Shown here: one piece after another, positions 3,448 to 53,843 of the stretch
Position numbering within the stretch: the first letter of the stretch is position 1
Layout of the letters: every line of letters starts with the position of its first letter
NCBI GenBank assembly: GCA_028288505.1
Contig: JAQBNN010000020.1
Coordinates: 1 to 57,576, forward strand
Direction: 5' to 3'
DNA: 57,576 nucleotides
Source of the DNA: Segetibacter sp.
GTDB taxonomy: Bacteria > Bacteroidota > Bacteroidia > Chitinophagales > Chitinophagaceae
The notes under the pieces: generated by a model
Seen by the model: only the letters and a program-made list of their open reading frames with translations
Database searches by the model: none
What the model was told of the DNA's origin: nothing
Translations under genes and position numbers: made by a program

Positions 3448-3472
3448 CATCGTTGTGTCACTCACTTGTACT
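3448..3472 (+). repeat. B-type arm downstream of queA
   Basis: CATCGTTGTGTCACTCACTTGTACT. Confidence 0.93.
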
Positions 3473-3494
3473 ATAAGTTCCTGTAGCAGCTTTA

Positions 3495-3566
3495 GCCGCA
3501 AAGACACTAAGACACGAAGTAACACAAAGACCTTAGCGAGTCTTTGTGCCTTTGTGTCTTAGTGGC
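3495..3566. repeat. GCCGCAAAGACACTAAG inverted hairpin repeat nested between B and A arms
   Basis: GCCGCAAAGACACTAAG ... CTTTGTGTCTTAGTGGC. Confidence 0.85.
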
Positions 3567-3591
3567 ATAAAAAGAAGAATAAAGAGATACA

Positions 3592-3616
3592 AGTACAAGA
3601 GTGCGACGCAACGATG
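3592..3616 (-). repeat. A-type arm downstream of folE
   Basis: AGTACAAGAGTGCGACGCAACGATG. Confidence 0.93.
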
Positions 3617-3644
3617 ATGAAAAGAATTACAACAGTTGGGACCA

Positions 3645-3677
3645 TAAAAAAAGCCCTGCAAATTGCAAGGCCTTTAG
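3645..3677 (-). terminator. rho-independent terminator after folE
   Basis: Minus strand: AAAGGCCTTGC-aattt-GCAGGGCTTTTTTT. Confidence 0.7.
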
Positions 3678-3694
3678 AGAATATGGTTTTATGA

Positions 3695-4291
3695 TTAATG
3701 CAGTTTTGCGGATACCAACTTAAGAAACTCACTACGCGTTGGTATTTTTTCGAATTCACCTGAAAATGCCGATGTAGTAGTAGAAGAGTTTTGCTTTTGC
3801 ACACCACGCATCATCATACATAAATGTGAAGCTTCAATAATTACTGCAACGCCGAGTGGATTTAACGCTTCTTTTATAGCGTCTAAGATTTGCGTGGTAA
3901 GCCTTTCCTGCACCTGCAAGCGCTTTGAAAAAACGTCAACAACACGGGCAATTTTACTGAGGCCCGTTATGTAACCATTGGGTATGTAAGCAACGTGCGC
4001 CTTACCATAAAAAGGCAGCATGTGGTGTTCACACATGCTGTACAACTCAATGTCTTTTACAATAATCATCTCACTCACATCTTCGTGAAACTTTGCGGAG
4101 TTTAAAATTTCAACTGCGTTTTGTTGGTAGCCTTGTGTAGCAAACTGCATCGCCTTTGCTATGCGTTCAGGTGTTTTCAACAAGCCTTCGCGTTGCGGAT
4201 CTTCGCCTAACAACGTTATCATTTCACGGTAATTAACTGCAAGCCCTTCTGTTATATTTTCGTCGAACGTTTCTTTTTTATGATATGCCAT
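3695..4291 (-). CDS. folE: GTP cyclohydrolase I
   Basis: 198 aa; '[53 protein letters not shown]' and '[24 protein letters not shown]'. Confidence 0.95.
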
Positions 4292-4305
4292 GCTTTCAAA
4301 TTTAT

Positions 4306-4719
4306 TTATACCGGGTACTCAACAAAGTTTCTTGGAGTTTCATATAACCTTATTTGAAGCTCAAACTTTGGATTTATTAGTTCCCTGAGAATATTATAGA
4401 TAACGATAACAATGTTTTCGGCTGTTGGGTTAAGTTGGGCAAACTCTTTTGTATCGAGGTTTAAATTCTTGTGATCGAACTTTGCCAGCACGTGTTGCTG
4501 AATCAAATCGCTTAAAATTTTAAGATCGATAACATAACCGGTAGCAGGATCTGGTTCGCCAACAACCTTTACAATCAAGTCGTAGTTGTGGCCATGGTAA
4601 TTTGGATTGTTGCATTTACCAAAGACAGCATCGTTCTGCTGATCGTCCCACGATTTATTATACAACCTGTGTGCTGCATTAAAATGCTCCTTTCGAAAAA
4701 CGGCTACTTTGCTCATCAC
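4306..4719 (-). CDS. 6-pyruvoyl tetrahydropterin synthase / QueD family protein
   Basis: 137 aa; '[10 protein letters not shown]', '[11 protein letters not shown]', 'DHKNLN', '[12 protein letters not shown]', '[11 protein letters not shown]'. Confidence 0.9.
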
Positions 4720-4767
4720 GCGTAATTTAAGAACAGGTTATAAAAAATAAAGCCAAAAAATAATCAG

Positions 4768-5181
4768 CTAGTTCTCTCCGAAATATTCAACAAAAATTCG
4801 CGGAGTTTCATATAGTTTAATACAATGCAACTTAACCTCGGCAGGTAAATGAGGATTTAGTTGCTCCCAAATGCATTGCGCCAAAACTTCTGTGCTACAC
4901 ATTTTTCCTGCTAAGAAATCAACATCAAGATTTAAATTCTTATGATCTATTTTTTTAGTTACATGCTCCTGCACCAGTAAGCTCAACTTTTTTGCATCGA
5001 ATAAAAAACCCGTCTCAGGATCTACCTTTCCCTTTATCGTCACATATAAGTCGTAGTTGTGCCCATGCCAGTTCTCGTTGGCGCAAACACCAAAAACTTC
5101 CTCGTTCTTTTCCTTGCTCCAGGCAGGATTAAAAAGTTTGTGAGCGGCGTTAAAATGTTCTATCCTCGTCAGGTATACCAT
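4768..5181 (-). CDS. 6-pyruvoyl tetrahydropterin synthase / QueD family protein (second tandem paralog)
   Basis: 137 aa; 'IEHFNAAHKL', 'CANENWHGHNY', 'DHKNLN', 'KLYETPRIFVEYF'. Confidence 0.9.
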   Translation of the reverse strand: MVYLTRIEHFNAAHKLFNPAWSKEKNEEVFGVCANENWHGHNYDLYVTIKGKVDPETGFLFDAKKLSLLVQEHVTKKIDHKNLNLDVDFLAGKMCSTEVLAQCIWEQLNPHLPAEVKLHCIKLYETPRIFVEYFGEN

Positions 5182-5262
5182 TCTTCTCTTAAAATTTTCT
5201 CAAAGGTAACATTTGAAAACAAAATGCATTGACAGATGCACATCTCTTACGACCTTTAACAT

Positions 5263-5931
5263 ATGAGAGTTGTAATAAGTTCGGCTACAGCTAACGAATG
5301 GGTGAAAATAAATGAAGTTATTAATCCACTTTACACGGGAGAAAGTCAACGACTACAAGTGTCTTTTCATGTGAGTGGCGTTGGTATTCTTCCGTCTACA
5401 TTTTCGCTCAGCCAACTAATTATTCAACAGCAGCCAGACCTTGTTATCCAGGCTGGCATTGCGGGCACTTTCGATACCCGGATTCCTTTAGGTAAAGTAG
5501 TTGCCGTAAAAGATGAAGCATTAGCTGATACCGGCGTTGAAGAAAATGGCAAATGGAAAGATGTCTTCGATTTAAAATTGCAGGCACAGAACGAACCTCC
5601 ATTTGAAAAGAAAAAGCTTATCAATCCCTGGTTGGAAAAATACAATATTTTAAAGCTGCCGGAGGTAAGTGGCGTAACAATATCGCAAGTAACCACTAAA
5701 GCCGAACGTGCCAGGCAGATTGAAAAAAAATACAATCCTGTTGTTGAGAGCATGGAAGGTGCAGCCTTACATTATGTTTGTCTACAAACTGTAACGCCCT
5801 TCATACAAATAAGAGGAATCAGTAATTATATTGGCGAAAGAAATAAGGCAAACTGGAAAATAAAAGAAGCACTTGACAACGTTACAACTAACGTAACAAA
5901 GCTTTTAGACAGGCTTTATAAATTAAAGTAG
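5263..5931 (+). CDS. mqnB: futalosine hydrolase
   Basis: 222 aa nucleosidase-like: 'VSGVGILPSTFSLSQLI', 'PDLVIQAGIAGTFD', 'VVESMEGAALHYVC'; adjacent to mqnD. Confidence 0.88.
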   Translation: MRVVISSATANEWVKINEVINPLYTGESQRLQVSFHVSGVGILPSTFSLSQLIIQQQPDLVIQAGIAGTFDTRIPLGKVVAVKDEALADTGVEENGKWKDVFDLKLQAQNEPPFEKKKLINPWLEKYNILKLPEVSGVTISQVTTKAERARQIEKKYNPVVESMEGAALHYVCLQTVTPFIQIRGISNYIGERNKANWKIKEALDNVTTNVTKLLDRLYKLK

Positions 5932-5956
5932 ATTTTAAAAACATAAAGGATTAGCA

Positions 5957-6778
5957 TTGAAACTAACACTAGGATTTAGCCCGTGCCCCAATGATACTTT
6001 TATTTTTGATGCACTTGTAAATAAAAAAATTCATACAGGTGATTTTGAACTTGCCGTAATACTTGAAGACGTTCAAACGCTCAATAAATGGGCAAAGGAA
6101 AGCAGGCTCGACATAAGTAAAATAAGCTACGGTGTACTTCCATTATTGCTTAACGAATACATACTTCTAAACAGCGGTGGCGCCCTCGGTACTGGCGTTG
6201 GCCCCTTGCTTATTGCCACTTCCCCTATTGAAGATTTTGAAAATAATTTAGACAACCTTAAGGTGGTTATCCCGGGCGAAAATACAACGGCTCATATGTT
6301 GTTTACAATGGCGTTTCCTAATGTAACCAACAAACATTTTGTGGTATTTAACGAAGTGGAAGACCTCGTGCTTAAAGGTGAAGCGGATGCAGGAGTGATC
6401 ATTCATGAGAACCGGTTTACTTATGCAGAACGAGGATTAGTTAAGTGGCTTGACATGGGTGAGTTCTGGGAAAAGGAAACGGGTGTTCCAATTCCGTTAG
6501 GCGGCATTGTTGCAAAAAGATCGCTACCATTGGGGGTACTCGAAGAGGTAAACAGCCTTATTAAAAAAAGCATTGAATACGCTTTTGAACATTACCCTTT
6601 TGTTGCCGATTATGTGAAAGAACATTCGCAGGAAATGAGTGAAGACGTTATGCGTAAGCATATAGATTTGTACGTAAACAAATACTCCCTTGATTTAGGT
6701 GAGAATGGAAAGTCGGCGGTAAGAAAGTTGCTAAGTGTATATAAAGTGGAGGAAGACAAGTCTGTATTTTTGCATTAG
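5957..6778 (+). CDS. mqnD: 1,4-dihydroxy-6-naphthoate synthase
   Basis: 273 aa; 'LGFSPCPNDTFIFDALV', 'EDVQTLNKWA', 'GVIIHENRFTY'. Starts with TTG. Confidence 0.9.
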   Translation: MKLTLGFSPCPNDTFIFDALVNKKIHTGDFELAVILEDVQTLNKWAKESRLDISKISYGVLPLLLNEYILLNSGGALGTGVGPLLIATSPIEDFENNLDNLKVVIPGENTTAHMLFTMAFPNVTNKHFVVFNEVEDLVLKGEADAGVIIHENRFTYAERGLVKWLDMGEFWEKETGVPIPLGGIVAKRSLPLGVLEEVNSLIKKSIEYAFEHYPFVADYVKEHSQEMSEDVMRKHIDLYVNKYSLDLGENGKSAVRKLLSVYKVEEDKSVFLH

Positions 6779-6808
6779 TTAGTTACCGGCTTTTGTATTT
6801 CATAGCAT

Positions 6809-6833
6809 CATCGTTGTGTCACTCACTTGTACT
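6809..6833 (+). repeat. B-type arm downstream of mqnD
   Basis: CATCGTTGTGTCACTCACTTGTACT. Confidence 0.93.
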
Positions 6834-6854
6834 TTTTACTCTTAATGCAGCAAT

Positions 6855-6928
6855 GGCCGCAAAGACGCTAAGGACCAAAAAAACACAAAGACTTTAGCGA
6901 GCATGGAAACCTTCTTGCCTTTATGGCT
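6855..6928. repeat. GGCCGCAAAGACGCTAAGG hairpin repeat, degenerate right arm, nested between B and A arms
   Basis: GGCCGCAAAGACGCTAAGGACC ... CTTTAGCGAGCATGGAAACCTTCTTGCCTTTATGGC. Confidence 0.65.
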
Positions 6929-6956
6929 CTCAAAAAAAGATGAATAAAGATTTGCA

Positions 6957-6981
6957 AGTACAAGAGTGCGACGCAAGAATG
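6957..6981 (-). repeat. A-type arm downstream of the photolyase gene
   Basis: AGTACAAGAGTGCGACGCAAGAATG. Confidence 0.92.
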
Positions 6982-7017
6982 CTAAATAGAAATATTGAAG
7001 ACGGGTACAAAAGAATT

Positions 7018-8328
7018 CTATTTACGTAAAGCCTTTGCATAGGTTTCTAAAGCACGAGCTCGCGCTCTTGCATGGTCAACAATAGGTTTTGCATAACTAA
7101 ACTCCTGGAACTCGGGCACCCACTTTTTAATGTATTCAAAAGCTTTGTCAAACTTCTGCATTTGTAGTGTTGGATTAAAAATTCTAAAGTAAGGAGCAGC
7201 ATCAACACCACTACCAGCGGCCCATTGCCAACCTCCGTTATTGGAAGCCAACTCAAAGTCAAGCAGCTTTTGTGCGAAATACGCCTCGCCCCAGCGATAG
7301 TCTATTAATAAATGTTTGGTAAGAAAACTGGCGACTATCATTCGTACACGGTTATGCATAAAACCAGTTGCATTTAGTTCTCGCATGCCAGCATCAACAA
7401 TAGGATAGCCGGTGTTGCCTTCGCACCACTTCGCAAACTCTTCCTCGTTGTTTCGCCACTCAATATTTTCGTATTCAGGCTTAAAAGTTTTGCCATTGCC
7501 GACATGTGGAAAATGCCATAAAATCGTTTGGTAAAACTCACGCCAAATGATTTCGTTGAGGTATGTTTCATTTAATTCAAGAGCTGTTCTTGCCAACTCT
7601 CTTACACTTAAAGTTCCAAACCGCAAGTGAACACCTAATCTTGAAGTTCCTTTATCAAGCCTCGGAAAATCTCTTGTATCAGCATAAGTTTTAATCAGTT
7701 CGGCCTGTAACTCTTTAGAGGGAAATGGATGATTGATGTTTTGAAAACCCATGCTCTGCAATGAAGGTATTTCAAGGAGTTGTTGCTTATAAAAATTGTG
7801 AGCGTATTTAGAGGTAGGATAAGAAGACAAATAAAACTCGTTGAGTTTCGCTTTCCATTTTCTACTGTAAGGAGTAAAAACGGTGTAGGGCTCGCCGTTA
7901 TCTTTCAGCACTTCATTTTTTTCAAAAATTACCTGGTCTTTGAAAGTTGTAAAGGTAATATTGTGTGCAGATAACAGCGAAGCAATAGCTGCATCTCTTT
8001 CCTTTGCATAAGGCTCGTAATCGTGATTAGTCAACACGTTAACCATGTTGTACTTCGCAAGCAATTGCAGAAAGATATCTGCAGGATTTCCATAGAAAAC
8101 CTCCAGCGTAGAACCAAGTTTGGATAGGTGGGCCTGCATTTCCTGCAAGGCTGAATGTATAAATTCAACTCTCCTATTCGCTTTATCGTCAAGGTTGTCG
8201 AGTATGCCCTTGTCAAAAACGAAAATGGGAACAACGGGAAAAGTACTTTTGAGCGCATGGTAAAGAGCAGCGTTGTCATTTAAGCGCAAGTCTCTTCTAA
8301 ACCACATTATACTTACTTTTTCCTTCAT
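7018..8328 (-). CDS. deoxyribodipyrimidine photolyase / cryptochrome family
   Basis: 'MKEKVSIMWFRRDLRLNDNAALYHAL...', 'IIWREFYQTILWHFP', 'WCEGNTGYPIVDAGMRELNATGFMHNRVRMIVASFLTKHLLIDYRWGE'. Start moved to 8328 because the tracked ORF (to 8445) overlaps the next gene. Confidence 0.93.
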   Translation of the reverse strand: MKEKVSIMWFRRDLRLNDNAALYHALKSTFPVVPIFVFDKGILDNLDDKANRRVEFIHSALQEMQAHLSKLGSTLEVFYGNPADIFLQLLAKYNMVNVLTNHDYEPYAKERDAAIASLLSAHNITFTTFKDQVIFEKNEVLKDNGEPYTVFTPYSRKWKAKLNEFYLSSYPTSKYAHNFYKQQLLEIPSLQSMGFQNINHPFPSKELQAELIKTYADTRDFPRLDKGTSRLGVHLRFGTLSVRELARTALELNETYLNEIIWREFYQTILWHFPHVGNGKTFKPEYENIEWRNNEEEFAKWCEGNTGYPIVDAGMRELNATGFMHNRVRMIVASFLTKHLLIDYRWGEAYFAQKLLDFELASNNGGWQWAAGSGVDAAPYFRIFNPTLQMQKFDKAFEYIKKWVPEFQEFSYAKPIVDHARARARALETYAKALRK

Positions 8329-8371
8329 CCTTGTGTTTGCTTTAAAACAATTTAAGAGAAGAAAAGTTTGG

Positions 8372-9214
8372 CTATTGCCACAAAGGAGTAATGCACTCTT
8401 TATAAAGATGAGAGGAAAAATTGTTGAGGAAAGTATTAGCGCCAATCTTCTTCACCCATTTTAATCCTGTAACAGCGTTAGTAACAAACACTTCCCTTGC
8501 CTCGTGTAGTTCTTCAATTGTAATAGTTGCTTCGGTGCATTTGATATGATTGTTTCTGCACCAGCCCATAATATACTTTCTCATCACGCCGTCTACGCAT
8601 CCTTCCGTTATGCCCGGAGTAAACAACTGGTCATCCCGAAGCAAAAAAAGATTGGCTATTGAACATTCCACCACTTTATCAAAAGCATTTAATAAAATAC
8701 AATCGTCCAAAAACTTTCTGTTCGCCCACGCTGCACCCATTAAGTAAGGCAGGTAACTATTTGTTTTTAGGGCAGAGTATAAATCGTAATTTTTTCGCCC
8801 GTCTTTAAATACATCGAGCATAAGGCCCTGCTTGTTTAATTGATCAGCGGCAGGTTCTAAAGGAATCGATTCAATATAAATGTTTGGAGAATTATCAACA
8901 TCCTGAAATAAACCACCTTCGCCCCTGTATACCATTACACGAAGCCGGCAACTTTGCAGTTTATTGGCCTGTAAGAGTTCCTGTATATCATCGAAAAGTT
9001 TTTGAGGCGTTAATAGCGAAGGAATGGTAAACTGTAGTGTTTGTAGAGTATTAAATAGTCTTTGAAAGTGCAGTTCTACGAGGGGGATTCTTGTGTTTAC
9101 TACCCGCATCGTCTCAAAAAAACCATCACCATACCTGAAAGAACGATTACGGGGCGAGATACAAACAACTGATTCTTTTACAACCTTTCCATTAAGCGAA
9201 ATGTATGATGACAT
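8372..9214 (-). CDS. aminotransferase class IV (4-amino-4-deoxychorismate lyase or branched-chain aminotransferase-like)
   Basis: 280 aa; 'SFRYGDGFFETMRV', 'NSYLPYLMGAAWA', 'VECSIANLFLLRDDQLFTPGITEGCVDGVMR'. Confidence 0.85.
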   Translation of the reverse strand: MSSYISLNGKVVKESVVCISPRNRSFRYGDGFFETMRVVNTRIPLVELHFQRLFNTLQTLQFTIPSLLTPQKLFDDIQELLQANKLQSCRLRVMVYRGEGGLFQDVDNSPNIYIESIPLEPAADQLNKQGLMLDVFKDGRKNYDLYSALKTNSYLPYLMGAAWANRKFLDDCILLNAFDKVVECSIANLFLLRDDQLFTPGITEGCVDGVMRKYIMGWCRNNHIKCTEATITIEELHEAREVFVTNAVTGLKWVKKIGANTFLNNFSSHLYKECITPLWQ

Positions 9215-9220
9215 GGCAAA

Positions 9221-9256
9221 AAATAAAAGCCCGACAAGAATGGCGGGCAGAAAAAA
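9221..9256 (-). terminator. rho-independent terminator after the NarL-type regulator gene
   Basis: Minus strand: CTGCCCGCCATTCTTGTCGGGCTTTTATTTTTT. Confidence 0.65.
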
Positions 9257-9267
9257 TAAGTTTGTTA

Positions 9268-9936
9268 TCAGCCTTCTACTATACCATGCTTAACAGCATA
9301 TAAAATCAATCCTGCTGTACTCTTTGCACCGGTTTTGATTTTTAAGCGATCTCTTATTGCCTCGACCGTTCTTGGACTTATATCTACAATATCGGCAATT
9401 TCTTTTGTGCTTTTTTCATCGCACATGAGCCTAAGTACTTGTATCTCTTTCTCACTCAACTCGGCATCATCAGGTAACGAGGTCTCAATCATTCTTTTAC
9501 TTCTAAGGCCACTTAACATTGCCTTGTTAGTATACTCGTTAAAGAAAAACTCTTTGGTATGTACTGTCTTTATTGCCTCGTAAATCGTTTCGCTGTCGCT
9601 GTTTTTAGTAAGGTAACTGTTAGCCCCAATCTCCATAAGTTTACTAATCATGCTTACATCATCATTCATAGTCAGCATAATTATCCGTACGTCGGGAAGC
9701 ACCTTACGCACTTCCGGTAAAGTAGCAATGCCATCCATTATTGGCATTTGAATGTCCAACAAGATCACATCGGGGTGTAAAAATTTAACCAGGTTAAGCA
9801 ATTGCATGCCATTCTCTGCCTCACCCAAAAACTCAATGTCTGGGTAGTGAGATAACGATGCCTTCACACCGGTTCTAAACAAAGCATGGTCGTCGGTGAT
9901 TAAAACTTTTATTTTACCATTACTGTCTGTGCTCAT
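9268..9936 (-). CDS. NarL/FixJ-type response regulator (REC + LuxR HTH)
   Basis: 222 aa; 'VLITDDHALFRTGVKASL', 'DVILLDIQMPIMDGI', 'LSEKEIQVLRLMCDEKSTKEIADIVDISPRTVEAIRDRLKIKTG'. Confidence 0.95.
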   Translation of the reverse strand: MSTDSNGKIKVLITDDHALFRTGVKASLSHYPDIEFLGEAENGMQLLNLVKFLHPDVILLDIQMPIMDGIATLPEVRKVLPDVRIIMLTMNDDVSMISKLMEIGANSYLTKNSDSETIYEAIKTVHTKEFFFNEYTNKAMLSGLRSKRMIETSLPDDAELSEKEIQVLRLMCDEKSTKEIADIVDISPRTVEAIRDRLKIKTGAKSTAGLILYAVKHGIVEG

Positions 9937-10376: not shown

Positions 10377-10400
10377 CATTCTTGCGTCGCACTATTGTAC
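10377..10400 (+). repeat. A-type arm (left)
   Basis: CATTCTTGCGTCGCACTATTGTAC; paired with the inverted A arm at 10524. Confidence 0.8.
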
Positions 10401-10523: not shown

Positions 10524-10548
10524 AGTACAAGAGTGCGACGCAACGGTT
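10524..10548 (-). repeat. A-type arm (right)
   Basis: AGTACAAGAGTGCGACGCAACGGTT. Confidence 0.85.
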
Positions 10549-13616: not shown

Positions 13617-13623
13617 AAAATGT

Positions 13624-17967: not shown

Positions 17968-17992
17968 CATCGTTGTGTCACTCACTTGTACT
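17968..17992 (+). repeat. B-type arm downstream of glnN
   Basis: CATCGTTGTGTCACTCACTTGTACT. Confidence 0.93.
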
Positions 17993-18817: not shown

Positions 18818-18842
18818 AGTACAAGAGTGCGACGCAAGGGCT
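18818..18842 (-). repeat. A-type arm downstream of accC
   Basis: AGTACAAGAGTGCGACGCAAGGGCT, followed by GCTTAATAG. Confidence 0.9.
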
Positions 18843-21151: not shown

Positions 21152-21175
21152 CCGTTGCGTCGCACTCTTGTACCT
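21152..21175 (+). repeat. A-type arm, unpaired, between divergent accB and murF
   Basis: CCGTTGCGTCGCACTCTTGTACCT. Confidence 0.85.
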
Positions 21176-26488: not shown

Positions 26489-26528
26489 ACTATTATTTTT
26501 TGCCTGGCTTACTTACTTAAAAAACTTG

Positions 26529-26609
26529 GGCCGCAAAGGCACTAAGGCTCGAAGTAACGCTAAGGAAAGAATCTTTGTGACACTTTGCGCCTTAGTGTCT
26601 TTGCGGCCT
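26529..26609. repeat. GGCCGCAAAGGCACTAAGGC hairpin repeat
   Basis: GGCCGCAAAGGCACTAAGGC ... GCGCCTTAGTGTCTTTGCGGCC. Confidence 0.85.
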
Positions 26610-26631: not shown

Positions 26632-26656
26632 AGTACAAGTGTGCGACGCAAGGATG
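26632..26656 (-). repeat. A-type arm downstream of metZ
   Basis: AGTACAAGTGTGCGACGCAAGGATG followed by TTTAATAG. Confidence 0.85.
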
Positions 26657-29017: not shown

Positions 29018-29041
29018 CATCGTTGTGTCACTCACTTGTAC
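29018..29041 (+). repeat. B-type arm between metX and the DUF2490 gene
   Basis: CATCGTTGTGTCACTCACTTGTAC; about 25 bp upstream also resembles 6782-6808 (GTTACCGGCxTTTGTATTTCAT). Confidence 0.9.
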
Positions 29042-29084: not shown

Positions 29085-29843
29085 TTACTCTGCTACTTTC
29101 TTCCTCCTTACATCCAGGTTTTGAAAGTAGGCTATTCTAATTACATCAGCATTTCTGTATCGATTACCTGCCGGCAACTGAATAAATTGATTTAAATAGC
29201 CGAACTGTAAATTATCGTGCGCATTGGTATTCACTTTTAAGCCTAAAAACAGGCGGTTTTGGTCGAAGTAGTTATTTACTACCTGCTTACCAAAGTTTAT
29301 AAGCAATTCATCATTAACAATAAAGGACCAACGCCCAGGGGTATTAGGGGCTTTATTAAAAGGAATTTCGTATAAAAAATTATACCGCAACCTCCAGTTA
29401 AAACTGTACCCTTCAGCTAATTTATCAGCGGTTTCGAACTTACGGCGGTAACGCTCTTCAAGCCTGATGTACTGCATTAAACGTGTCTTCGCATTCTTTG
29501 TATGCCACTGTATTTGCTGCCAGGGGCGATGCTCTGGTTGATTAACATTGGTACTTGCATCGGCCGGGTAATTGGTAATATAACCGTACCCTGCTGTAAG
29601 TTTGGTTACATCGTTAAGATAGTAAGTTAATCCAACTCTCGCTATTGTAGTAGACAGGTCTTCAACATAATAATCTTTAGTTCGAAATTGGAGATCCGTC
29701 CATAAACCAACCTTATCTGAAAAACGAGTTTGGTTGAAGTAGGCGCCCCAGATCTGGTTATAATGAGTGGTTGTTTTTGTTTGGGCCTTAACTGTTACAA
29801 CTGTTAGCACCATTGCCGCTAGAACTATAATCTTCTTATTCAT
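29085..29843 (-). CDS. DUF2490 family protein (secreted, beta-barrel-like)
   Basis: 252 aa; signal peptide, 'HYNQIWGAYFNQTRFSDKVGLWTDLQFRTKDYYVEDLSTTIARVGLTYYLND', 'YIRLEERYRRKF'. Confidence 0.82.
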   Translation of the reverse strand: MNKKIIVLAAMVLTVVTVKAQTKTTTHYNQIWGAYFNQTRFSDKVGLWTDLQFRTKDYYVEDLSTTIARVGLTYYLNDVTKLTAGYGYITNYPADASTNVNQPEHRPWQQIQWHTKNAKTRLMQYIRLEERYRRKFETADKLAEGYSFNWRLRYNFLYEIPFNKAPNTPGRWSFIVNDELLINFGKQVVNNYFDQNRLFLGLKVNTNAHDNLQFGYLNQFIQLPAGNRYRNADVIRIAYFQNLDVRRKKVAE

Positions 29844-29912: not shown

Positions 29913-29937
29913 AGTACAAGTGTGCGACGCAACGATG
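29913..29937 (-). repeat. A-type arm upstream of the DUF2490 gene
   Basis: AGTACAAGTGTGCGACGCAACGATG. Confidence 0.9.
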
Positions 29938-33645: not shown

Positions 33646-35163
33646 TTAAAACACCTTCACTAAAATCCTCATACTCCAAATAATAACAAGTATACCAAGG
33701 AGGATAAACGAGGCTTTACGAGGTAGCCTTCCGGCAAGACGAGCTGCTATAGGAGCCGCAAGGAGACCACCAATAATTAAAGCAACAATAACCTGCCAGT
33801 GGGTAACACCAAGCATAGTAAAAAAAGTAAAGGCGCTTGCAAGGGTAACAAAAAACTCAGTTAAGCTTACCGAACCAATAACATATTTAGGGCTACGACC
33901 TTTGGTGATGAGCGTTGTAGTAACTATTGGTCCCCAACCGCCACCGCCGAAAGAATCAAGGAAACCACCTATGCCTGCAAGCAGGCTAAAATTTTTAAAT
34001 TTCTTTGCAACTTTTGTAGTTCTAAAAGCATTTATAAGAATTCGCAAACCAAGAAATAAAGTATAAACAGCCATAACAGGCTTTAGGTATTGAGCATGTG
34101 TATCGCCATACTTACTCAACAATACGGCACCAAGTATGGCACCTAAAACACCTGGGATCACAAGTATTTTAAACAGTTTTTTATTTACGTTTCCAAACTT
34201 ATAATGGCTATAGCCAGAGGCGCCACTTGCAAACATTTCTGCTGTATGAATGCTGCCACTTATAGATGAAAGATTAACCCCGGCAGATAATAATATGGTA
34301 GCACTAGTAACACCATAGCCCATACCTAAAGCACCATCAACCAACTGGGCAAGAAAGCCCGCCAGGATCATCCAATGAAAATTAGCATCGAGGGTTTGGT
34401 AATAATCTATTGTGCTATTTGCTATGCCTCTTAATGGAACATAAGCAAAAATAAAATGACCAATAAGCATTACCGCAAAAACGCTTACAGAGTAAGTAGC
34501 AATCCGCTTCCATTGCACACTCTTTTCCTGCTTACCATCTTCCACTAATCCCCTGGTAAGATGGTTTAGTTTCTTCACCTTATCAGCAAAATTGCCATTC
34601 AGTTTATTCCTTATCTGGTGCAGGTTAGTAATTACGTCATCCAACTCTGGTGGCAGTGCATCAGCTAATACTTCTTTAATTCTTTTAGCTGCCGTTGGCG
34701 ATTTTCCGTTTGTAGATATGGCTATTTTAAGATTTCCTTTTTTTACCACAGAGCCTAAATAAAAATCACATAGCTCAGGCTTATCAGCTACATTAATCAA
34801 CTTGCCTTGCGCCCTTGCGGCTTCGGCAATTGCTGCACTTGCTACTACATCATCAATTGCAGAAATTACCACTTCAATGTCGTTTAAATCGCCTGCATCA
34901 AAAGGCTTTTCTAACAGATGTATGTTACTATTATATTTCGCAATTTCTCTAATCTCTTTGCTTATTGAAGTAGCAACCAACTTAATATTTGTTGCAGGCG
35001 AATTACTTAGAACAGCATTCAACTTCTCTAATCCTATATTTCCTCCACCTACAATTAATAGCCGTAGATGCTCTAGTTTTAAAAATACAGGAAAGAGGTT
35101 ATTCACCTCCTTAATAGAACTAGGCTCGTTAATAGTTTCGCTATTTAATTTTGTTTCCTGCAT
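33646..35163 (-). CDS. fusion: Met8/CysG-N-like precorrin-2 dehydrogenase (siroheme synthase N-domain) + TauE/SafE-type membrane transporter
   Basis: 505 aa; N-terminus 'LFPVFLKLEHLRLLIVGGGNIGLEKLNAVL...VADKPELCDFYLGSVVKKGNLKIAISTNGKSPTAAKRIKEVL'; C-terminus 'FLAQLVDGALGMGYGVTSATILLSAGV...GFLDSFGGGGWGPIVTTTLITKGRSPKYVIGSVSLTEFFVTLAS'. Confidence 0.9.
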   Translation of the reverse strand: MQETKLNSETINEPSSIKEVNNLFPVFLKLEHLRLLIVGGGNIGLEKLNAVLSNSPATNIKLVATSISKEIREIAKYNSNIHLLEKPFDAGDLNDIEVVISAIDDVVASAAIAEAARAQGKLINVADKPELCDFYLGSVVKKGNLKIAISTNGKSPTAAKRIKEVLADALPPELDDVITNLHQIRNKLNGNFADKVKKLNHLTRGLVEDGKQEKSVQWKRIATYSVSVFAVMLIGHFIFAYVPLRGIANSTIDYYQTLDANFHWMILAGFLAQLVDGALGMGYGVTSATILLSAGVNLSSISGSIHTAEMFASGASGYSHYKFGNVNKKLFKILVIPGVLGAILGAVLLSKYGDTHAQYLKPVMAVYTLFLGLRILINAFRTTKVAKKFKNFSLLAGIGGFLDSFGGGGWGPIVTTTLITKGRSPKYVIGSVSLTEFFVTLASAFTFFTMLGVTHWQVIVALIIGGLLAAPIAARLAGRLPRKASFILLGILVIIWSMRILVKVF

Positions 35164-35273: not shown

Positions 35274-35298
35274 CATCGTTGTGTCACTCACTTGTACT
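35274..35298 (+). repeat. B-type arm between the fusion gene and cysI
   Basis: CATCGTTGTGTCACTCACTTGTACT. Confidence 0.92.
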
Positions 35299-37202: not shown

Positions 37203-37227
37203 CGTACAAGAGTGCGACGCAAGTAAG
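37203..37227 (-). repeat. A-type arm between cysI and cysJ
   Basis: CGTACAAGAGTGCGACGCAAGTAAG, followed by GTTTAATAG. Confidence 0.85.
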
Positions 37228-41303: not shown

Positions 41304-41325
41304 CCGTTGCGTCGCACTCTTGTAC
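41304..41325 (+). repeat. A-type arm between cysN and cysD
   Basis: CCGTTGCGTCGCACTCTTGTAC. Confidence 0.85.
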
Positions 41326-41473
41326 AGACTTTCTTTATTATGCTTTTTGTTTTGAACCACAGAATCACTTTTCGTAATAGAGTTTCACCGAGCGTTTTGT
41401 TCTTTTGAATCTATAAGACGCAAAGGACACAAAGCTTCACTAAGTTTTTTCTTTGTTTGTTCCTCCAGTTGGC

Positions 41474-41530
41474 TGTGTCACTCACTTGTACTTGCTGCTT
41501 AAAGCACTACAAGTACAAGTGAGTGACACA
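41474..41530. repeat. perfect 21-bp inverted repeat of B-type arms (hairpin, 15-nt loop)
   Basis: TGTGTCACTCACTTGTACTTG-ctgcttaaagcacta-CAAGTACAAGTGAGTGACACA. Confidence 0.95.
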
Positions 41531-41564
41531 ACGATGTTGAGTAAAGACTTTCTGTTCGATCCAA

Positions 41565-47370: not shown

Positions 47371-47444
47371 TAAGCAAACGTGTATGTTTTTGAGCTATTT
47401 ATTTATATTGTTGTCCATGCATCAATAATGCTATTAAACTTTTC

Positions 47445-47463
47445 TTGCGTCGCACTCTTGTAC
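47445..47463 (+). repeat. A-type arm between GH106 and isomerase genes
   Basis: TTGCGTCGCACTCTTGTAC, preceded by CTATTAAAC. Confidence 0.85.
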
Positions 47464-47479
47464 GTTCTATTCGCTACTC

Positions 47480-47570
47480 ATCATTGCGAGGAACGTAGCA
47501 ATGTGCCGAACTGACGTTAGACCTGTTTTAATTTGTTAAGGAGATTGCTTAGTCGTTCCTCGTAATGACG
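47480..47570. repeat. inverted pair of TCATTGCGAGGAACG...-type repeat, nested between A and B arms
   Basis: CATCATTGCGAGGAACGTAGCAATG and GATTGCTTAGTCGTTCCTCGTAATGACG. Confidence 0.8.
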
Positions 47571-47583
47571 ATGTAAGTGCAAC

Positions 47584-47608
47584 AGTACAAGTGAGTGACA
47601 CAACGATG
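47584..47608 (-). repeat. B-type arm downstream of the isomerase gene
   Basis: AGTACAAGTGAGTGACACAACGATG. Confidence 0.92.
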
Positions 47609-47703
47609 ATGAGTAAAGAACTAATGTTTGTAACATAAGATTCAACTCTAACAAATGAAATTCATTGAAGCCTCATCATTCATCATTCACAATTCATCAT
47701 TCC

Positions 47704-49182
47704 CTAACCCACCTTCACCACTTCCATATTTAACAAGGCACCCAATTTTTCTATCTTAGAACTTATGTGACCAACGCCAACTGCGCAGTGATGTGCAGGG
47801 CCGTGACTGTTCCAATTATTTACAAATTGACGGGCACCGATCTTGAACTTGTAACGACTGTTGGTATTACCAATTTGTAATATTGGGCCGGGAACAGACT
47901 CGGCTTCGGCAACGAGTAACATAAGCTTACCGTTTGCTTTTTCAACAACACTTAGCAGCGTAACTGGCCCATTCTTTACGCTCATTTCAACCGATACACC
48001 TTTACCAACTTTACCATGATAAACACCTAATGGACGCACTTTTGTTTTGCCTTCAGCAATGGCAATATGACCTGGCCCATCGTGGCCCATTAGCACAACA
48101 TCATCTTTAAAATCCATTGCATAATACTCGGTGAAAGAACCGCCAACACCAAATGTGTCCATGATTTTCATGGCTTGTGCATTCTTGATTTCATACTCGC
48201 CGGCAACAGGAATTCCATTGGCGGTGAGCAACGAATTGCCAAGAATGATACTGGCAATGGCCTCTTCGTTTTCGGCATTGCCTGTGCCTTTATAATAGTA
48301 CGCCATAGAGCCTAGCTTATGTATAGCAACGAGTTTATCTAAAGCAACAGAAGTAATGGCAGCCTTCTCCAACTCTTCAACAGGGCAGTCTTCCTGAACA
48401 TCAAAAGTTTCCTGAAACAAATGCAACCTGTCTGTTATTTCCTTATCAGTTACTTGTTTGCGAAGGCTTGCAAGCTCTTCCACTTCGAGCAACTCAATGT
48501 GGCCACCAAAGTGAGAATATTGTTGTGTGAGGTCTGTATAAATATCGAGCATGCCGCTATAATAATGACCCATGCAACCAAGACGATTATATAACATAGT
48601 GTTAGCAACCTTTGCTGCTTCCACCCATTCGGTTATTTCGTTCCAACATTCTTCATCGTTATTGAGTATGCCTGTTATCTGGTGAAACTTTATTCCAACT
48701 CGATTAAAGACATTGGCAATTTCAGGAACAGGACATGGGGAGCAATATGCTAACCATTCGCCTGTCATCTTAGTGCGGTCTGTCATTGCATTGAAAGAAG
48801 CATAATCAATACTTTCTTCAGGGGCAAGATTTAAAATGATGACAGGAACTTTTGCACGTTGTACAACCGGCAAAACTGTTGATGAGAGTGCATAGGTTGT
48901 AACGTATAAAAAAATAAGGTCAACATCTTGTTGCTTAAACATACGACCAGTATCAAAAGCCTTATCAGCATTATCAACCAAACCTGCATTGATAATGTTT
49001 GGATGAATTGCAGCAAGCTTATTTTCTACTTGTGATAGATATCCAGTTAACCTTTGTTCTAAACCTTCAAACTGTGTCCAATACGTGTCGAGGCCAATAC
49101 CAAACAAACCAATCTTTAAGTTTGAATTCGTTTGATTGGCTGTATTATCATTAGTTATAGCAAGCTTGTTTTGTATGTTCAT
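47704..49182 (-). CDS. L-fucose/L-arabinose isomerase-family protein
   Basis: 492 aa; 'LKIGLFGIGLDTYWTQFEGL', 'VTTYALSSTVLPVVQRAKVPVIILNLAP', 'LMGHDGPGHIAIAEGKTKVRPL', 'WNSHGPAHHCAVGVG'. Confidence 0.8.
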   Translation of the reverse strand: MNIQNKLAITNDNTANQTNSNLKIGLFGIGLDTYWTQFEGLEQRLTGYLSQVENKLAAIHPNIINAGLVDNADKAFDTGRMFKQQDVDLIFLYVTTYALSSTVLPVVQRAKVPVIILNLAPEESIDYASFNAMTDRTKMTGEWLAYCSPCPVPEIANVFNRVGIKFHQITGILNNDEECWNEITEWVEAAKVANTMLYNRLGCMGHYYSGMLDIYTDLTQQYSHFGGHIELLEVEELASLRKQVTDKEITDRLHLFQETFDVQEDCPVEELEKAAITSVALDKLVAIHKLGSMAYYYKGTGNAENEEAIASIILGNSLLTANGIPVAGEYEIKNAQAMKIMDTFGVGGSFTEYYAMDFKDDVVLMGHDGPGHIAIAEGKTKVRPLGVYHGKVGKGVSVEMSVKNGPVTLLSVVEKANGKLMLLVAEAESVPGPILQIGNTNSRYKFKIGARQFVNNWNSHGPAHHCAVGVGHISSKIEKLGALLNMEVVKVG

Positions 49183-49191
49183 TCTGAGATT

Positions 49192-51957
49192 TTAATTAAC
49201 GCTAAAGTTATAATCGCCTGAACCAACTTTTAAAACTGCCTTACCTTTTTCGAAACCTACTAATTTAATGTCTTTGTTGATTGCTGCATTGCCTTCGGTT
49301 ATCTTATTCTTGTTTGTAGCAGGCAGATAAACCGTTGCAGTTGTATTGGCTGGTATTTGAACATGAAGATTAAACTTGTCGCCATCCTTCTTCCATTTAC
49401 TTATAATTTTACCATGAACAGAGTGATAAGAACCATTAGCAGAAGTAACATCGCCAACAATTTCAGGCTTAATAACAATGTGTTTATAAGCAATAGAACT
49501 ATCAGCCTGGTTGATGCCAAGCAGCCCTGTATAGAACCACTCCATCAAGTGCCCGAGCATTAAGTGATTGTTTGAATTAGTTGAAAGTGCTGCCCAACTC
49601 TCCGTTAATGCTGTCGCGCCTTTTGCCAATTGGTACCCATAACCCGGCAGATCTGTTCTGCTGTTCATATCATAAATTACGTCAGACCGACCTTCTTCGT
49701 GCAATACACAAAGGAGGTAACGATAACCGATATCGCCGGCAGTAAGACCATTGTTACGATTACGAATATCTTTCACTATGTTTTCTACAACTGCATGTTT
49801 ATATTGAGGCTCTACCAATTTCATATAAACTGCCATTGCATTTGCCGCTTGGCTGCCTGTTGCATATTGCTTTGTTTCTTGGTTGAAGAACGTATCGTTG
49901 AATGCTTGCTTTACTTCAGAAGCCAACTTATTATAAGATTCCGCATCATTTTTCTTACCTAATAAAGTTGCAATCTTACTTGCAATGTTAAGGTCGTAAT
50001 AATAGGTAGCTGTGCCTGTTACACCCAATGGTGTTAGTTGTGACAAACCCGGCGCCTTTGGTCCAAGGTCGTACCAATCGCCAAGTCCCTGCTTAAGTAT
50101 ATGGCCGTTGCTTTTTGTTTTTAAGTAATTGAGGTACCGCTGCATCATCGGATAAGCTTTTACCAACAACTGCTTATCACCGTACCACTGGTATAAATAC
50201 CACGGCATAATAATGCTGGAGCTACCCCATTCAGGTGAGTCTCTAAACATATCTCCACCCCACTCAAACTTTACATATTCGGGAGAGATTTCAGGTATAA
50301 GCCCTTCGCTTGTTTGAGAGTATTCCATATCATCGACAGCTTTTCTGTACAACTGCGTTATATCGTAATTATATTGAAGAGAATTACCCATTAAGTGAAC
50401 CTGCTCCAACCAGCCTAATTTTTCGCGGTGAGGACAATCGGTTAAAACACTTACTAAATTACTTTTTACTGCCCAGTCAATTAAAGTATTGGTGCGATTA
50501 AAAAGGTTGTTAGAACTTGTAAATTGGCCTACCCGTGGTGCTGCATTACGAACATGTAATCCTTTTATTTCGGTTAAAACTGCTAAGTTTTGAGGGTTGC
50601 TTTCACCTTGAGGTACTGCACCAATTACTTGAAGGTAGCGATAGCCATAGTATGTAAAACGTGGTTGCCAACTCTCTACACCGTCGCCTTTTAAAACATA
50701 TTGCAAGTAATAAGAGCTACCGGTGGGTCCCTGGGCAACAGTTCCATCTGCTCTTAACAGCTCACCTGGGTATATTCTTACTGTATCTCCCTTTCTGCCT
50801 TGAACTTTTATTGCAGGAATACCTGAAGCATTTTGGCCAAGGTCTAAAATATATATGTTCGCCTTTGGCTGCGTTATCTTTTTTGGGGTAAAAGTTTCCA
50901 TCACTCTTAAAGGTTCAGCCATTTGAGCATTCAATATTGGCGGACCATCAACTAATATTACTGGCCGCCAATTCTCCTCATTAAAGTTTGGAGTATCCCA
51001 TCCCTTTTGCTCAAGGTTTGCATCATAATCTTCACCGCCATAAATGCTGGAGAAAGTGATAGGGCTGGCACTTGTCTTCCAGGAAGCATCAGTTACAAAA
51101 TCTTCTTTTGTTCCATCTGTATATTCTATTGCAAGACGGGCAATCATTTTAGGATGACCGAAAGCTGTTTTTGTTTTACGGTAACGGCTTTTAAGGGGAG
51201 GGATAAAATAGAAACCATTACCAAGCATTACTCCAATGGCATTGGCTCCTTGCTGCAGTTGATTAGTCAAATCAAATAGAACATACAGGGCTTGTTTATC
51301 ATACTTTGTCCAGCCTGCATCTAAGAAATGGTCTTCAACTTTCTTACCGTTCAAGCTCATTTCGAAATGGCCAAGGCCTGTCATAAACATCGTAGCATTC
51401 TTAACCGGCTTCTTAATAGTTACATTCTTACGTAGCAAAGGCAACGTGTTATTTTCAAAGTACCTATCCTTCTTACCGTCAACAGGAAGAATGGCAATAT
51501 TAGTATCAGCTATCTTATCGTACGCAATCCACTTCGCTCCTTTCCAATCAGCTTTTGTAAATAAACCCATTTGCCAACTTGCTCCTTTACTCCAAACCGA
51601 CACATTGTTCTTGTTATCCCAAACCATTACCTTCCAGTAATATTTCTTAGTAGGCTCTAACTTTTTACCTGCATAAAATACTTGTATAGATTGTCCTGAA
51701 CTTACTTTCTTCGAATCCCAAACATTACCAGTATTACTTTTAAGCCATGCAGGGTTATCAGCAACCAAAACACGATAAGCTGTTTGCATTATATTCCGCT
51801 GTTTCGAATTCAACTCCCAGCTTAATGCCGGTTTCGCCGCTTCAACACCTAAAGGGTTTATTTTGTACTCGCACTTAAGGTTTAACACTCCAATACTTTG
51901 AGAGAAAACTGAAAGCGTTATAAAAGCAAGAAAAGCAATGAAAAATATTCTAAGCAT
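49192..51957 (-). CDS. GH78 alpha-L-rhamnosidase
   Basis: 921 aa; 'YKINPLGVEAAKPALSWEL', 'LTDCPHREKLGWLEQVHLMGNSLQYNYD', 'GTATYYYDLNIASKIATLLGK', 'ALTESWAALSTNSNNHLMLGHLMEWFY'. Confidence 0.93.
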   Translation of the reverse strand: MLRIFFIAFLAFITLSVFSQSIGVLNLKCEYKINPLGVEAAKPALSWELNSKQRNIMQTAYRVLVADNPAWLKSNTGNVWDSKKVSSGQSIQVFYAGKKLEPTKKYYWKVMVWDNKNNVSVWSKGASWQMGLFTKADWKGAKWIAYDKIADTNIAILPVDGKKDRYFENNTLPLLRKNVTIKKPVKNATMFMTGLGHFEMSLNGKKVEDHFLDAGWTKYDKQALYVLFDLTNQLQQGANAIGVMLGNGFYFIPPLKSRYRKTKTAFGHPKMIARLAIEYTDGTKEDFVTDASWKTSASPITFSSIYGGEDYDANLEQKGWDTPNFNEENWRPVILVDGPPILNAQMAEPLRVMETFTPKKITQPKANIYILDLGQNASGIPAIKVQGRKGDTVRIYPGELLRADGTVAQGPTGSSYYLQYVLKGDGVESWQPRFTYYGYRYLQVIGAVPQGESNPQNLAVLTEIKGLHVRNAAPRVGQFTSSNNLFNRTNTLIDWAVKSNLVSVLTDCPHREKLGWLEQVHLMGNSLQYNYDITQLYRKAVDDMEYSQTSEGLIPEISPEYVKFEWGGDMFRDSPEWGSSSIIMPWYLYQWYGDKQLLVKAYPMMQRYLNYLKTKSNGHILKQGLGDWYDLGPKAPGLSQLTPLGVTGTATYYYDLNIASKIATLLGKKNDAESYNKLASEVKQAFNDTFFNQETKQYATGSQAANAMAVYMKLVEPQYKHAVVENIVKDIRNRNNGLTAGDIGYRYLLCVLHEEGRSDVIYDMNSRTDLPGYGYQLAKGATALTESWAALSTNSNNHLMLGHLMEWFYTGLLGINQADSSIAYKHIVIKPEIVGDVTSANGSYHSVHGKIISKWKKDGDKFNLHVQIPANTTATVYLPATNKNKITEGNAAINKDIKLVGFEKGKAVLKVGSGDYNFSVN

Positions 51958-52298
51958 AATGGCAAGATTATAGAGGAAAGGAAATAAAGTTAGTAGTTGA
52001 ATTAGGTTCGAACATAACTATATAAGAAAACTTTGTGCAAACGAAAAATGAAAGTTCATAAGGTAATGATTTTGTATTAGCAATTGTTATAATGCCAAAA
52101 GATTGGTTGAGTAATCATATTAAGGCTTACCTATTAACTGATGAAGGTAGAGTAGCAGACGGGTATAAGTAATGTCAACATTTACTAATCTGATGGAACA
52201 TTTTACTATTCACACTTTAGATTATACTTTTCTTTCTACATTCAAACAGTAAAAGTTCGACCCACTTTTAATCACAACTATTATTCTTTATTGCTGCC

Positions 52299-53726
52299 AT
52301 GAAATTATATTTAGCACTTCTATCTATCCTCGTTTTCCTGCTTATCCCGTTTATTCATTTTGCACAACCTAAACTACCCTCGCTGTTTACTGATAACATG
52401 GTATTGCAGCAGCAAACAGATGTAGCATTTTGGGGTTGGGCAAATGCAGGAAGCAAAATCAGAGTAACCACTTCATGGAATAAAAAAAGCTACACTGCGA
52501 CAACCAATGCTGAGGGTAAATGGAAATTAAAAGTACAAACCCCTCAATCAGGTGGCCCATACGAAGTAACCATAACTGATGGCAAGCCAATAACATTAGT
52601 TAATGTACTAATTGGCGAAGTCTGGTTGTTAGGCGGACAGTCAAACATGGAAATGCCAATGAAAGGTTTTAAAAATCAACCAATCCTTGGTTCTAATGAT
52701 GCTATCCTACATTCAAAAAATAAGAACATTCGCCTTTACACTGTTCCCCGTTCTTCGGTTATAGAAGTGCAGGAAAACAGCAAGCCATCTGAATGGAAGG
52801 AAGCTTCTCCTGAAGCCGTTAGCAACTTCAGCGCTACCGGTTATTACTTTGGAAAGCTATTGAATGAAATGCTTGACGTTCCGGTCGGCTTAATCAATTG
52901 CAGCTATAGTGGTTCGTATGCCGAAGCATGGATGACACCCGAATCACTGAAAGAGTTTGGTGTAAAAATTCCGGTTAAAGGAGATACGATAAAAGCTGTA
53001 AGCCGCACTCCTACAACATTGTATAATGGTATGTTGCATCCCATTATTGGTTATGGTATTAAAGGTGCTTTATGGTACCAGGGCGAATCGAACTATGATG
53101 ACCCCGACAAGTATGAAAAGCTTTTTCCAACAATGGTGAAGCAATGGCGCAATGAATGGGGCATAGGTGACTATCCTTTTTATTACGCCCAGATAGCTCC
53201 ATACAACTATGCACAATTGCCTCCTTATAACACTGGTGGAAAATATAACTCTGCATATTTAAGAGGCGCTCAAAGAAAATCAGAGAAGGTGATACCTAAT
53301 ACAGCAATGGCTGTGTTAATGGATATAGGTGAAGAAAAGATGATACATCCATCAAACAAAGAAGCTGGTGGAAAACGCCTTGCCCTACTTGCCCTTGCTA
53401 AAACTTATGGATTGAAAGGCTTTGGCTATGCAAGTCCTGCTTATGATTCGTTTACTGTTGCCGGAAGCATTGCTACGGTTCGATTTCAAAACACGCCTAA
53501 TGGTTTAACATCTTTTGGTAAAGAGCTATCGCAATTTGAAGTTGCCGGAGCAAATAAAGTTTTCTTTCCTGCAAAGGCTTGGATAAACGGAAGCAATGTA
53601 TCAGTTTCTGCACCAGAGGTGAAGGAACCAGTTGCGGTAAGATATGCTTTCAAAGATTTTGTGGTAGGGGAATTGTTTAGTACGGAAGGATTGCCTGTGT
53701 CGAGTTTTAGAACGGATAGTTGGTGA
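52299..53726 (+). CDS. sialate O-acetylesterase-family (SASA) carbohydrate esterase
   Basis: 475 aa; 'LPSLFTDNMVLQQQTDVAFWGWA', 'GEVWLLGGQSNMEMPMKG', 'ALWYQGESNYDDPDKYEKLFPTMVKQWRNEWG'. Confidence 0.92.
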   Translation: MKLYLALLSILVFLLIPFIHFAQPKLPSLFTDNMVLQQQTDVAFWGWANAGSKIRVTTSWNKKSYTATTNAEGKWKLKVQTPQSGGPYEVTITDGKPITLVNVLIGEVWLLGGQSNMEMPMKGFKNQPILGSNDAILHSKNKNIRLYTVPRSSVIEVQENSKPSEWKEASPEAVSNFSATGYYFGKLLNEMLDVPVGLINCSYSGSYAEAWMTPESLKEFGVKIPVKGDTIKAVSRTPTTLYNGMLHPIIGYGIKGALWYQGESNYDDPDKYEKLFPTMVKQWRNEWGIGDYPFYYAQIAPYNYAQLPPYNTGGKYNSAYLRGAQRKSEKVIPNTAMAVLMDIGEEKMIHPSNKEAGGKRLALLALAKTYGLKGFGYASPAYDSFTVAGSIATVRFQNTPNGLTSFGKELSQFEVAGANKVFFPAKAWINGSNVSVSAPEVKEPVAVRYAFKDFVVGELFSTEGLPVSSFRTDSW

Positions 53727-53818
53727 AGAGAGTTATGAGTTATTAATGATGAGTTATGAGTGAAGCAACTTTTTGATTTTTGACTTCTTTTTGTAGTCAT
53801 CATTCCTACTTTACTCAT

Positions 53819-53843
53819 CATCGTTGCGTCGCACTCTTGTACC
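53819..53843 (+). repeat. A-type arm downstream of the esterase gene
   Basis: CATCGTTGCGTCGCACTCTTGTACC. Confidence 0.92.

What the first reader, a model, noticed from the sequence alone, without database searches (positions are those of the whole stretch)
3448..53843. Dispersed intergenic repeat family with two fixed arm types (A and B)
About 19 copies of a 25-bp core occur in 50 kb, all intergenic. Type A is CATCGTTGCGTCGCACTCTTGTACT and type B is CATCGTTGTGTCACTCACTTGTACT. They share the outer CATCGTTG and TTGTACT but differ consistently in the middle (CGTCGCACTC vs TGTCACTCAC). Several copies carry a further CTATTAAAC tail, and B copies at 6782 and 28990 share about 25 more bp (GTTACCGGCxTTTGTATTTCAT). 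Arms normally occur as inverted pairs with one A and one B (3448/3592, 6809/6957, 17968/18818, 29018/29913, 35274/37203, 47445/47584). The fixed A/B identity resembles a mobile or structured element with distinct left and right ends rather than a simple palindrome. I do not recognise it as a named family.
Basis: seen in the sequence. Interest (0 to 1): 0.85.

Follow-up and report, generated by a model that had tools for sequence, protein, structure and literature searches.

The report
One-way intergenic repeats in soil bacteria
A short piece of DNA that points one way sits between genes more than a thousand times in this soil bacterium, and also in many related genera and some of their phages, with a 19-letter centre that hardly varies and an unexplained rule that no second copy lies within about 1.2 kb on one side of it.

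Summary
The window holds 20 copies ("arms"); its genome, a Segetibacter-like Chitinophagaceae bacterium, holds over 1,000. The 19-bp core TTGYGTCRCWCWCTTGTAC has three alleles: A, B and a third, C. The full arm is a polar, roughly 75-bp unit that starts with a T-run. It occurs in 62 of 103 sampled genera of the family (0 to 1,864 copies per genome) and in genuine phage contigs.

Short convergent two-arm units (<250 bp) are real and dispersed as whole units. They are often A/B mixed, but not always. Most arms are single and at least as well conserved as paired ones. The "loaded" pairs bracket ordinary host genes and are chance neighbours.

The most unusual feature is polar exclusion: almost no other arm lies within about 1.2 kb on the T-run side, while the other side is free. 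Position and orientation persist between Segetibacter species, while the allele switches.

Tests for RAYT linkage, monomer hairpins, target duplications, type IV pili, Rfam families and gene cassettes were negative. Best reading: non-autonomous dispersed DNA recognised by an unidentified factor, REPIN-like in its pairs but not a member of that family. Mechanism unproven.

The parts
3453..3471 (+). arm B core, short pair with 3593
3593..3611 (-). arm A core, short pair with 3453
3415..3640 (.). complete two-arm unit; folds as a long imperfect hairpin (z -6.0); 74% identical over 212 bp to the unit at 6776-7005
6814..6832 (+). arm B core, short pair with 6958
6958..6976 (-). arm A core, short pair with 6814
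6776..7005 (.). complete two-arm unit, z -3.7
10382..10400 (+). arm A core (imperfect), short A/A pair with 10525
10525..10543 (-). arm A core, short A/A pair with 10382
17973..17991 (+). arm B core, 80 bp after the stop of type III glutamine synthetase
18819..18837 (-). arm A core, after the stop of biotin carboxylase; the same gene end carries an arm in many relatives
21155..21173 (+). arm A core, single
26633..26651 (-). arm C core, single
29023..29041 (+). arm B core, single (encloses a DUF2490 gene together with 29914)
29914..29932 (-). arm C core, single
35279..35297 (+). arm B core, single (encloses a sulfite reductase gene together with 37204)
37204..37222 (-). arm A core, single, in the gap between the CysJ-like and CysI-like genes
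41307..41325 (+). arm A core
41473..41491 (+). arm B core (1 mismatch), short B/B pair with 41513
41513..41531 (-). arm B core, short B/B pair with 41473
47445..47463 (+). arm A core, short pair with 47585
47585..47603 (-). arm B core, short pair with 47445
53824..53842 (+). arm A core, single, after the stop of the gene at 52299-53726

Best explanation
This is a family of non-coding, polar, roughly 75-bp intergenic repeat units that spread as non-autonomous DNA through Chitinophagaceae and their phages. SHOWN: the unit is T-run - GGTNACCRGC-like box - TACTATTAAGC-like box - invariant 19-bp core - TTTATTCAGC-like box; it has three block-inherited core alleles; it is gained in gaps of a conserved gene order; complete two-arm units with their interiors are copied to unrelated sites; single arms keep their core when the flanks diverge; other arms are almost absent within about 1.2 kb on the T-run side. 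INFERRED: an unidentified trans-acting protein or complex recognises the 19-bp core as double-stranded DNA (the monomer does not fold), and its action on or movement along the T-run side explains both core conservation and polar exclusion. INFERRED: copying uses that factor or a recombination route it triggers, not a RAYT. The two-arm unit works like a REPIN (an inverted doublet moving as one piece), but the single arm is also a working unit.
For: Counts: 0 to 1,864 copies per genome, 114 of 246 genomes, 62 of 103 genera, reversed-pattern control 0; within one genus, 1 copy in G007 and 1,093 in G000. Insertion into conserved synteny: the neighbouring genes keep their order with or without arms. 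Dispersed copies of whole two-arm units: 27 alignments between non-array units in G167 that span both cores and the interior; in the window, units 3415-3640 and 6776-7005. Arms in phage contigs that encode terminase, portal, major head, tail sheath and primase proteins. Core alleles move as blocks: CGAT 213, TATA 200, CGAA 101 at positions 4/8/10/12, with intermediates rare. No monomer structure, so recognition as DNA is likelier. Single arms are at least as well conserved as paired ones (258/382 against 123/216 perfect).
Against: No enzyme was found. No target-site duplication was detected for single arms (>=7 nt) or paired units (5-10 nt). Position and orientation are conserved within Segetibacter (8/31 against 1/95 gene ends) and single arms are well conserved, which is more than a purely selfish element needs and fits maintained function. 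Plain transposition does not explain polar exclusion. No closely related filled/empty pair of sites was available, so the exact insertion unit is inferred.
Confidence: 0.48

Rival explanations
1. Host-maintained polar boundary or roadblock sites: a DNA-binding protein bound at each arm acts on traffic (RNA polymerase, a helicase or a loop-extruding complex) arriving from the T-run side, so the genome is divided into stretches of 1.2-5 kb with T-run sides facing inwards and short convergent pairs as borders.
For: Polar exclusion in four genomes; intervals between '-' and '+' arms cluster at 1.2-5 kb; conserved position and orientation between species; single arms well conserved; 5'-side distance to a gene stop is short and constrained.
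Against: Patchy: about half of the sampled family genomes have none, and a same-genus species has one copy, so no essential architecture. Arms lie inside an operon (sulfite reductase). No protein known. The apparent 2.6-kb periodicity in G167 comes from a tandem gene array.
Confidence: 0.2
2. DNA-uptake or recombination signal (DUS/USS-like or Chi-like) spread by molecular drive: DNA on the T-run side of an arm is preferentially taken up or recombined over 1-2 kb, so a second arm there is redundant.
For: Copy numbers, alleles, close inverted pairs and over-regular spacing resemble what is described for DUS, where spacing matches conversion-fragment length and new DUS can enter by recombination (PMC2397512). 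Single site is the unit.
Against: The type IV pilus/type II secretion ATPase family PF00437 is present at full length in only 5 of 246 genomes and not in the arm-rich ones. Arms avoid coding sequence and are far longer than known uptake sequences. They are also in phages.
Confidence: 0.12
3. Classical REP/BIME/REPIN family mobilised by a RAYT (Y1 transposase).
For: Inverted doublets, intergenic, hundreds of copies; the genome has two Y1_Tnp remnants, one of them between two convergent arms.
Against: Arms beside the Y1_Tnp gene in only 2 of 29 gene-flank loci from relatives; G006 has 100 arms and no Y1_Tnp hit. The monomer does not fold. Singles are not decayed, the opposite of REPINs.
Confidence: 0.05
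4. Transcript 3'-end element: terminator, attenuator or mRNA-stability hairpin made by the arms.
For: About 57-62% of arms have a gene stop on the T-run side at a median of about 65-70 bp; two-arm units fold strongly.
Against: The monomer is unstructured and most arms are single. Hairpins before the T-run are no commoner than background except mildly in G084. At the biotin carboxylase end, real terminators lie separately, after or before the arm. No Rfam family matches the arms in the window or six viral loci.
Confidence: 0.07
5. Ends of gene cassettes or composite transposons: convergent arms carry the enclosed gene as cargo.
For: Many convergent neighbours at 0.25-2.4 kb enclose a gene; one phage pair (L277) carries a small gene that a related contig lacks.
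Against: Enclosed genes are ordinary host genes such as sulfite reductase, TsaE, Prs, AccD and QueG, none a transposase. Opposite-facing arms at 0.5-2.5 kb on the 3' side occur at background density, and their types are random.
Confidence: 0.03

Closest known systems
REPIN (REP doublets forming hairpins) and BIME
   Same: Two inverted copies of a short, highly conserved intergenic sequence with a variable interior are copied as a unit; a few fixed sequence groups; high copy number; patchy between related genomes.
   Different: Monomer not palindromic or structured; no linked RAYT; single copies at least as conserved as doublets; polar exclusion to about 1.2 kb, whereas REP next-neighbour distances above 200 bp are random (PMC3116915).
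CGTC-tagged REP families
   Same: Reported in Bacteroidetes; no dedicated transposase known (PMC3733652); alleles A and C contain CGTC.
   Different: Allele B has no CGTC; no stem-loop in the monomer; about 75-bp polar unit.
Neisserial DUS / Pasteurellaceae USS
   Same: Very high copy number of one exact core, alleles, close inverted pairs, non-random spacing.
   Different: Longer; almost only intergenic; present in phages; no type IV pilus ATPase in arm-rich genomes; uptake untested.
MITEs with terminal inverted repeats
   Same: Two-arm units of about 140-260 bp with long imperfect inverted arms and no coding sequence.
   Different: No target duplication found; no parent transposon; single arms are common and conserved.

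Membership tests
REP/BIME/REPIN | monomer is a palindrome that folds on its own | tested here: not met
   mean z about 0 on both strands for A and B
REP/BIME/REPIN | inverted doublets as the replicative unit | tested here: met
   108/118 neighbours under 250 bp convergent; whole units dispersed
REP/BIME/REPIN | singlets are decayed remnants | tested here: not met
   singles 258/382 perfect, paired 123/216
REP/BIME/REPIN | linked RAYT (Y1_Tnp) flanked by the repeat | tested here: not met
CGTC-tagged REP | CGTC tag next to a stem-loop in every member | tested here: not met
   allele B core TTGTGTCACTCACTTGTAC lacks CGTC; no stem-loop
MITE / DDE transposon | target-site duplication | tested here: not met
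   single arms >=7 nt; paired units 5-10 nt; shorter duplications not excluded
MITE / DDE transposon | autonomous relative with transposase between the same ends | tested here: inconclusive
   no transposase among about 33 enclosed genes checked; genomes only sampled
DNA uptake sequence | enhances uptake in a competent host | not testable with these tools
   needs an experiment
DNA uptake sequence | host has type IV pilus-type uptake machinery | tested here: not met
   full-length PF00437 in 5/246 genomes, not in arm-rich ones
Intrinsic terminator | GC-rich hairpin directly before the T-run | tested here: not met
   8-14% of stop-facing arms in three genomes, background 8-10%; 27% in G084
Known structured RNA | Rfam match at the arms | tested here: not met
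   window and six viral loci, only a tRNA elsewhere

The most novel reading that the evidence does not exclude
A new kind of polar genomic site: one 19-bp sequence, used more than a thousand times per genome and shared with phages, that loads or stops a DNA-travelling machine acting over 1-2 kb on one side only. It would divide the chromosome into short oriented stretches with convergent double sites as borders, a bacterial counterpart of orientation-dependent boundary elements or of a long Chi-like signal.
Probability: 0.2. Interest if true: 0.92.

Novelty: new variant of a known kind. Interest (0 to 1): 0.72.

Why it matters
It is a very dense non-coding repeat family (about one arm per 2.0-2.8 kb in three of four sampled genomes) that spans a whole bacterial family and its phages, and its core sequences occur in none of the open papers searched. 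It breaks the REPIN rules (no RAYT, no monomer hairpin, healthy singletons) and shows a polar spacing rule that none of the repeat models I considered explains. It makes a concrete question testable: which protein reads the 19-bp core, and what does it do over the next 1-2 kb on one side?

Tried and rejected
RAYT linkage. Single-arm RNA or ssDNA hairpin. Target-site duplications. T-run as a terminator remnant. An apparent 2.6-kb period in G167, traced to a tandem gene array at 249-295 kb. 'Domain = long gene' as the cause of exclusion: the T-run-side gene is only modestly longer (median 1.03-1.13 kb against 0.89-0.94 kb). Cassette brackets. Small ORF on the reverse strand: some arms are open, but the core shows no synonymous variation (read by eye). 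Type IV pilus correlation. Known phages and plasmids: no meaningful hit with one consensus query. Literature: the core sequences occur in no held paper. A G167/G084 comparison had too few orthologues to size the insertion.

Full report
WHAT IS THERE. The window contains 20 copies of a 19-bp core. Shuffled sequence gives none. The window is contig 73 of a 4.07-Mb assembly. Its genus includes a genome with a 245,701-bp contig, the same length as a Segetibacter koreensis scaffold, and the closest named relatives are Segetibacter, so it is a Segetibacter-like member of the Chitinophagaceae. The assembly holds 1,093 exact copies of TTGYGTCRCWCWCTTGTAC, with 0 for the reversed control. In 444 kb sampled there is one arm per 2.76 kb. 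None lies inside an ORF longer than 200 aa in this genome; 6 of 240 in G167 and 4 of 125 in G175 do.

ANATOMY. Aligned arms show a longer polar unit: a T-run about 38 nt before the core, a GGTNACCRGC-like box, a TACTATTAAGC-like box just before the core, the invariant core, then a TTTATTCAGC-like box. The flanks are loose and differ between genera; the core does not. At core positions 4, 8, 10 and 12 only three combinations are common (CGAT 213, TATA 200, CGAA 101), so alleles are copied as blocks. Positions 4 and 8 lie symmetrically in GYGTCRC and change together, which would suit a dimeric DNA-binding protein (inference). A single arm folds no better than shuffled sequence on either strand. 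Two-arm units fold strongly because the arms are complementary.

SPREAD. In 246 Chitinophagaceae genomes, 114 have exact copies, in 62 of 103 genera. Numbers run from 1 to 1,864 and vary sharply inside a genus. A complete 5.53-Mb genome, G167, holds 1,512. Arms also occur in 36 stretches of viral contigs. The ones checked encode terminase, portal, major head, tail sheath, tape measure and primase proteins, so at least these are genuine phages. Most phage arms keep the same longer layout; a few matches lack it.

MOVEMENT OR GAIN. Gene order around the arms is conserved with or without them. At the 3' end of biotin carboxylase, arms lie before the terminator in G000, G005, G008, G009 and G094, and after it in G084, G167, G175 and G096; several genomes have none. 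This implies repeated gain. In G167 outside a tandem gene array, 27 alignments between two-arm units span both cores and the interior, at unrelated places and in both orientations. So whole two-arm units are copied. No target duplication was detected.

PERSISTENCE. Within Segetibacter, gene ends that carry a T-run-facing arm in the window also carry one in another species in 8 of 31 comparisons, against 1 of 95 for other gene ends. Orientation is the same but the allele often differs: the QueA end is B in G000, A in G009 and G004, C in G005; the biotin carboxylase end is A in G000 and B in the others. The flanks have diverged while the cores remain perfect or one base off. Single arms are at least as intact as paired ones. 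Core conservation therefore needs either selection or homogenisation.

POLAR EXCLUSION. In four genomes, neighbouring arms under 250 bp are convergent in 108 of 118 cases. At 250-1,200 bp they are convergent in 44 of 52 cases (p = 3e-19 against one quarter; 6 divergent, 2 direct). The cross-correlation separates two effects. On the 3' side, opposite arms occur at background density beyond 500 bp, so gene-enclosing pairs are chance neighbours. On the 5' (T-run) side, arms of either orientation are nearly absent within about 1.2 kb, and numbers recover by about 2.2 kb. Gene length does not account for this. A 2.6-kb period that first appeared in G167 is an artefact of a tandem gene array.

WHAT IT IS NOT. 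Y1 transposase genes in relatives are not flanked by arms. Enclosed genes are housekeeping or metabolic genes, without transposases. Type IV pilus/type II ATPases are absent from arm-rich genomes. No Rfam family matches the loci scanned. The T-run is not usually preceded by a terminator hairpin.

COMPARISON. The nearest known class is the REPIN, an inverted doublet of REP sequences moved by a RAYT (PMC3116915). The two-arm units work like REPINs in being copied whole. Membership fails on the monomer palindrome, RAYT linkage, singlet decay and the absence of long-range spacing effects. The CGTC-tagged REPs (PMC3733652) fail because allele B has no CGTC and the monomer has no stem-loop. DNA uptake sequences share copy number, alleles, inverted pairs and non-random spacing (PMC2397512), but the expected machinery is missing and uptake is untested.

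JUDGEMENT. I favour non-autonomous dispersed DNA read by an unknown protein (0.48). The main rival is host-maintained polar sites (0.20). The step from 'invariant core plus polar exclusion' to 'a bound factor acting over 1-2 kb on one side' is inference, and the copying enzyme is unknown.

Noticed in passing
window 3490-3529, 6851-6890, 26525-26607: A second dispersed repeat (GCCGCAAAGACACTAAGACACGAAG...) forms the interior of two paired units and an inverted pair near a third arm; it looks like an independent family nested at the same kind of site.
   Followed up: no
window 47523-47576, 53961-54108, 56258-56357: CGTCATTGCGAGGAGGAACGACGAAGCAATCT-type inverted repeats, beginning with CGTC as in CGTC-tagged REPs; one lies inside the A/B pair at 47445/47585.
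   Followed up: no
window 33646-35163: Fused gene: a siroheme-synthase-like N-terminal part joined to a TauE/SafE sulfite exporter, beside sulfite reductase genes.
   Followed up: no
window 29085-29843: The DUF2490 gene belongs to the sulfite-operon neighbourhood in many relatives but changes its place within it.
   Followed up: partly
L151 3829-4143 and L152 2775-3176: Two Y1_Tnp remnants in the genome; the first carries three stop codons, the second lies between two convergent arms.
   Followed up: yes
L211-L213 (G167, 249-295 kb): Tandem array of gene-plus-spacer repeats of about 2.6 kb, with a two-arm unit of constant 24- or 31-bp interior in most spacers.
   Followed up: partly
L277 1173-2146 against L296 2022-2191: Two related phage contigs: homology ends at the arm core, and one has an extra small gene (DUF7448) between convergent arms, so arms may be mosaic joints in phages.
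   Followed up: partly
L273 4137-4155: In a phage, a decayed arm reads in frame as the C-terminal tail of a protein, and the next gene, a Mom-like DNA modification protein, starts directly after it.
   Followed up: no
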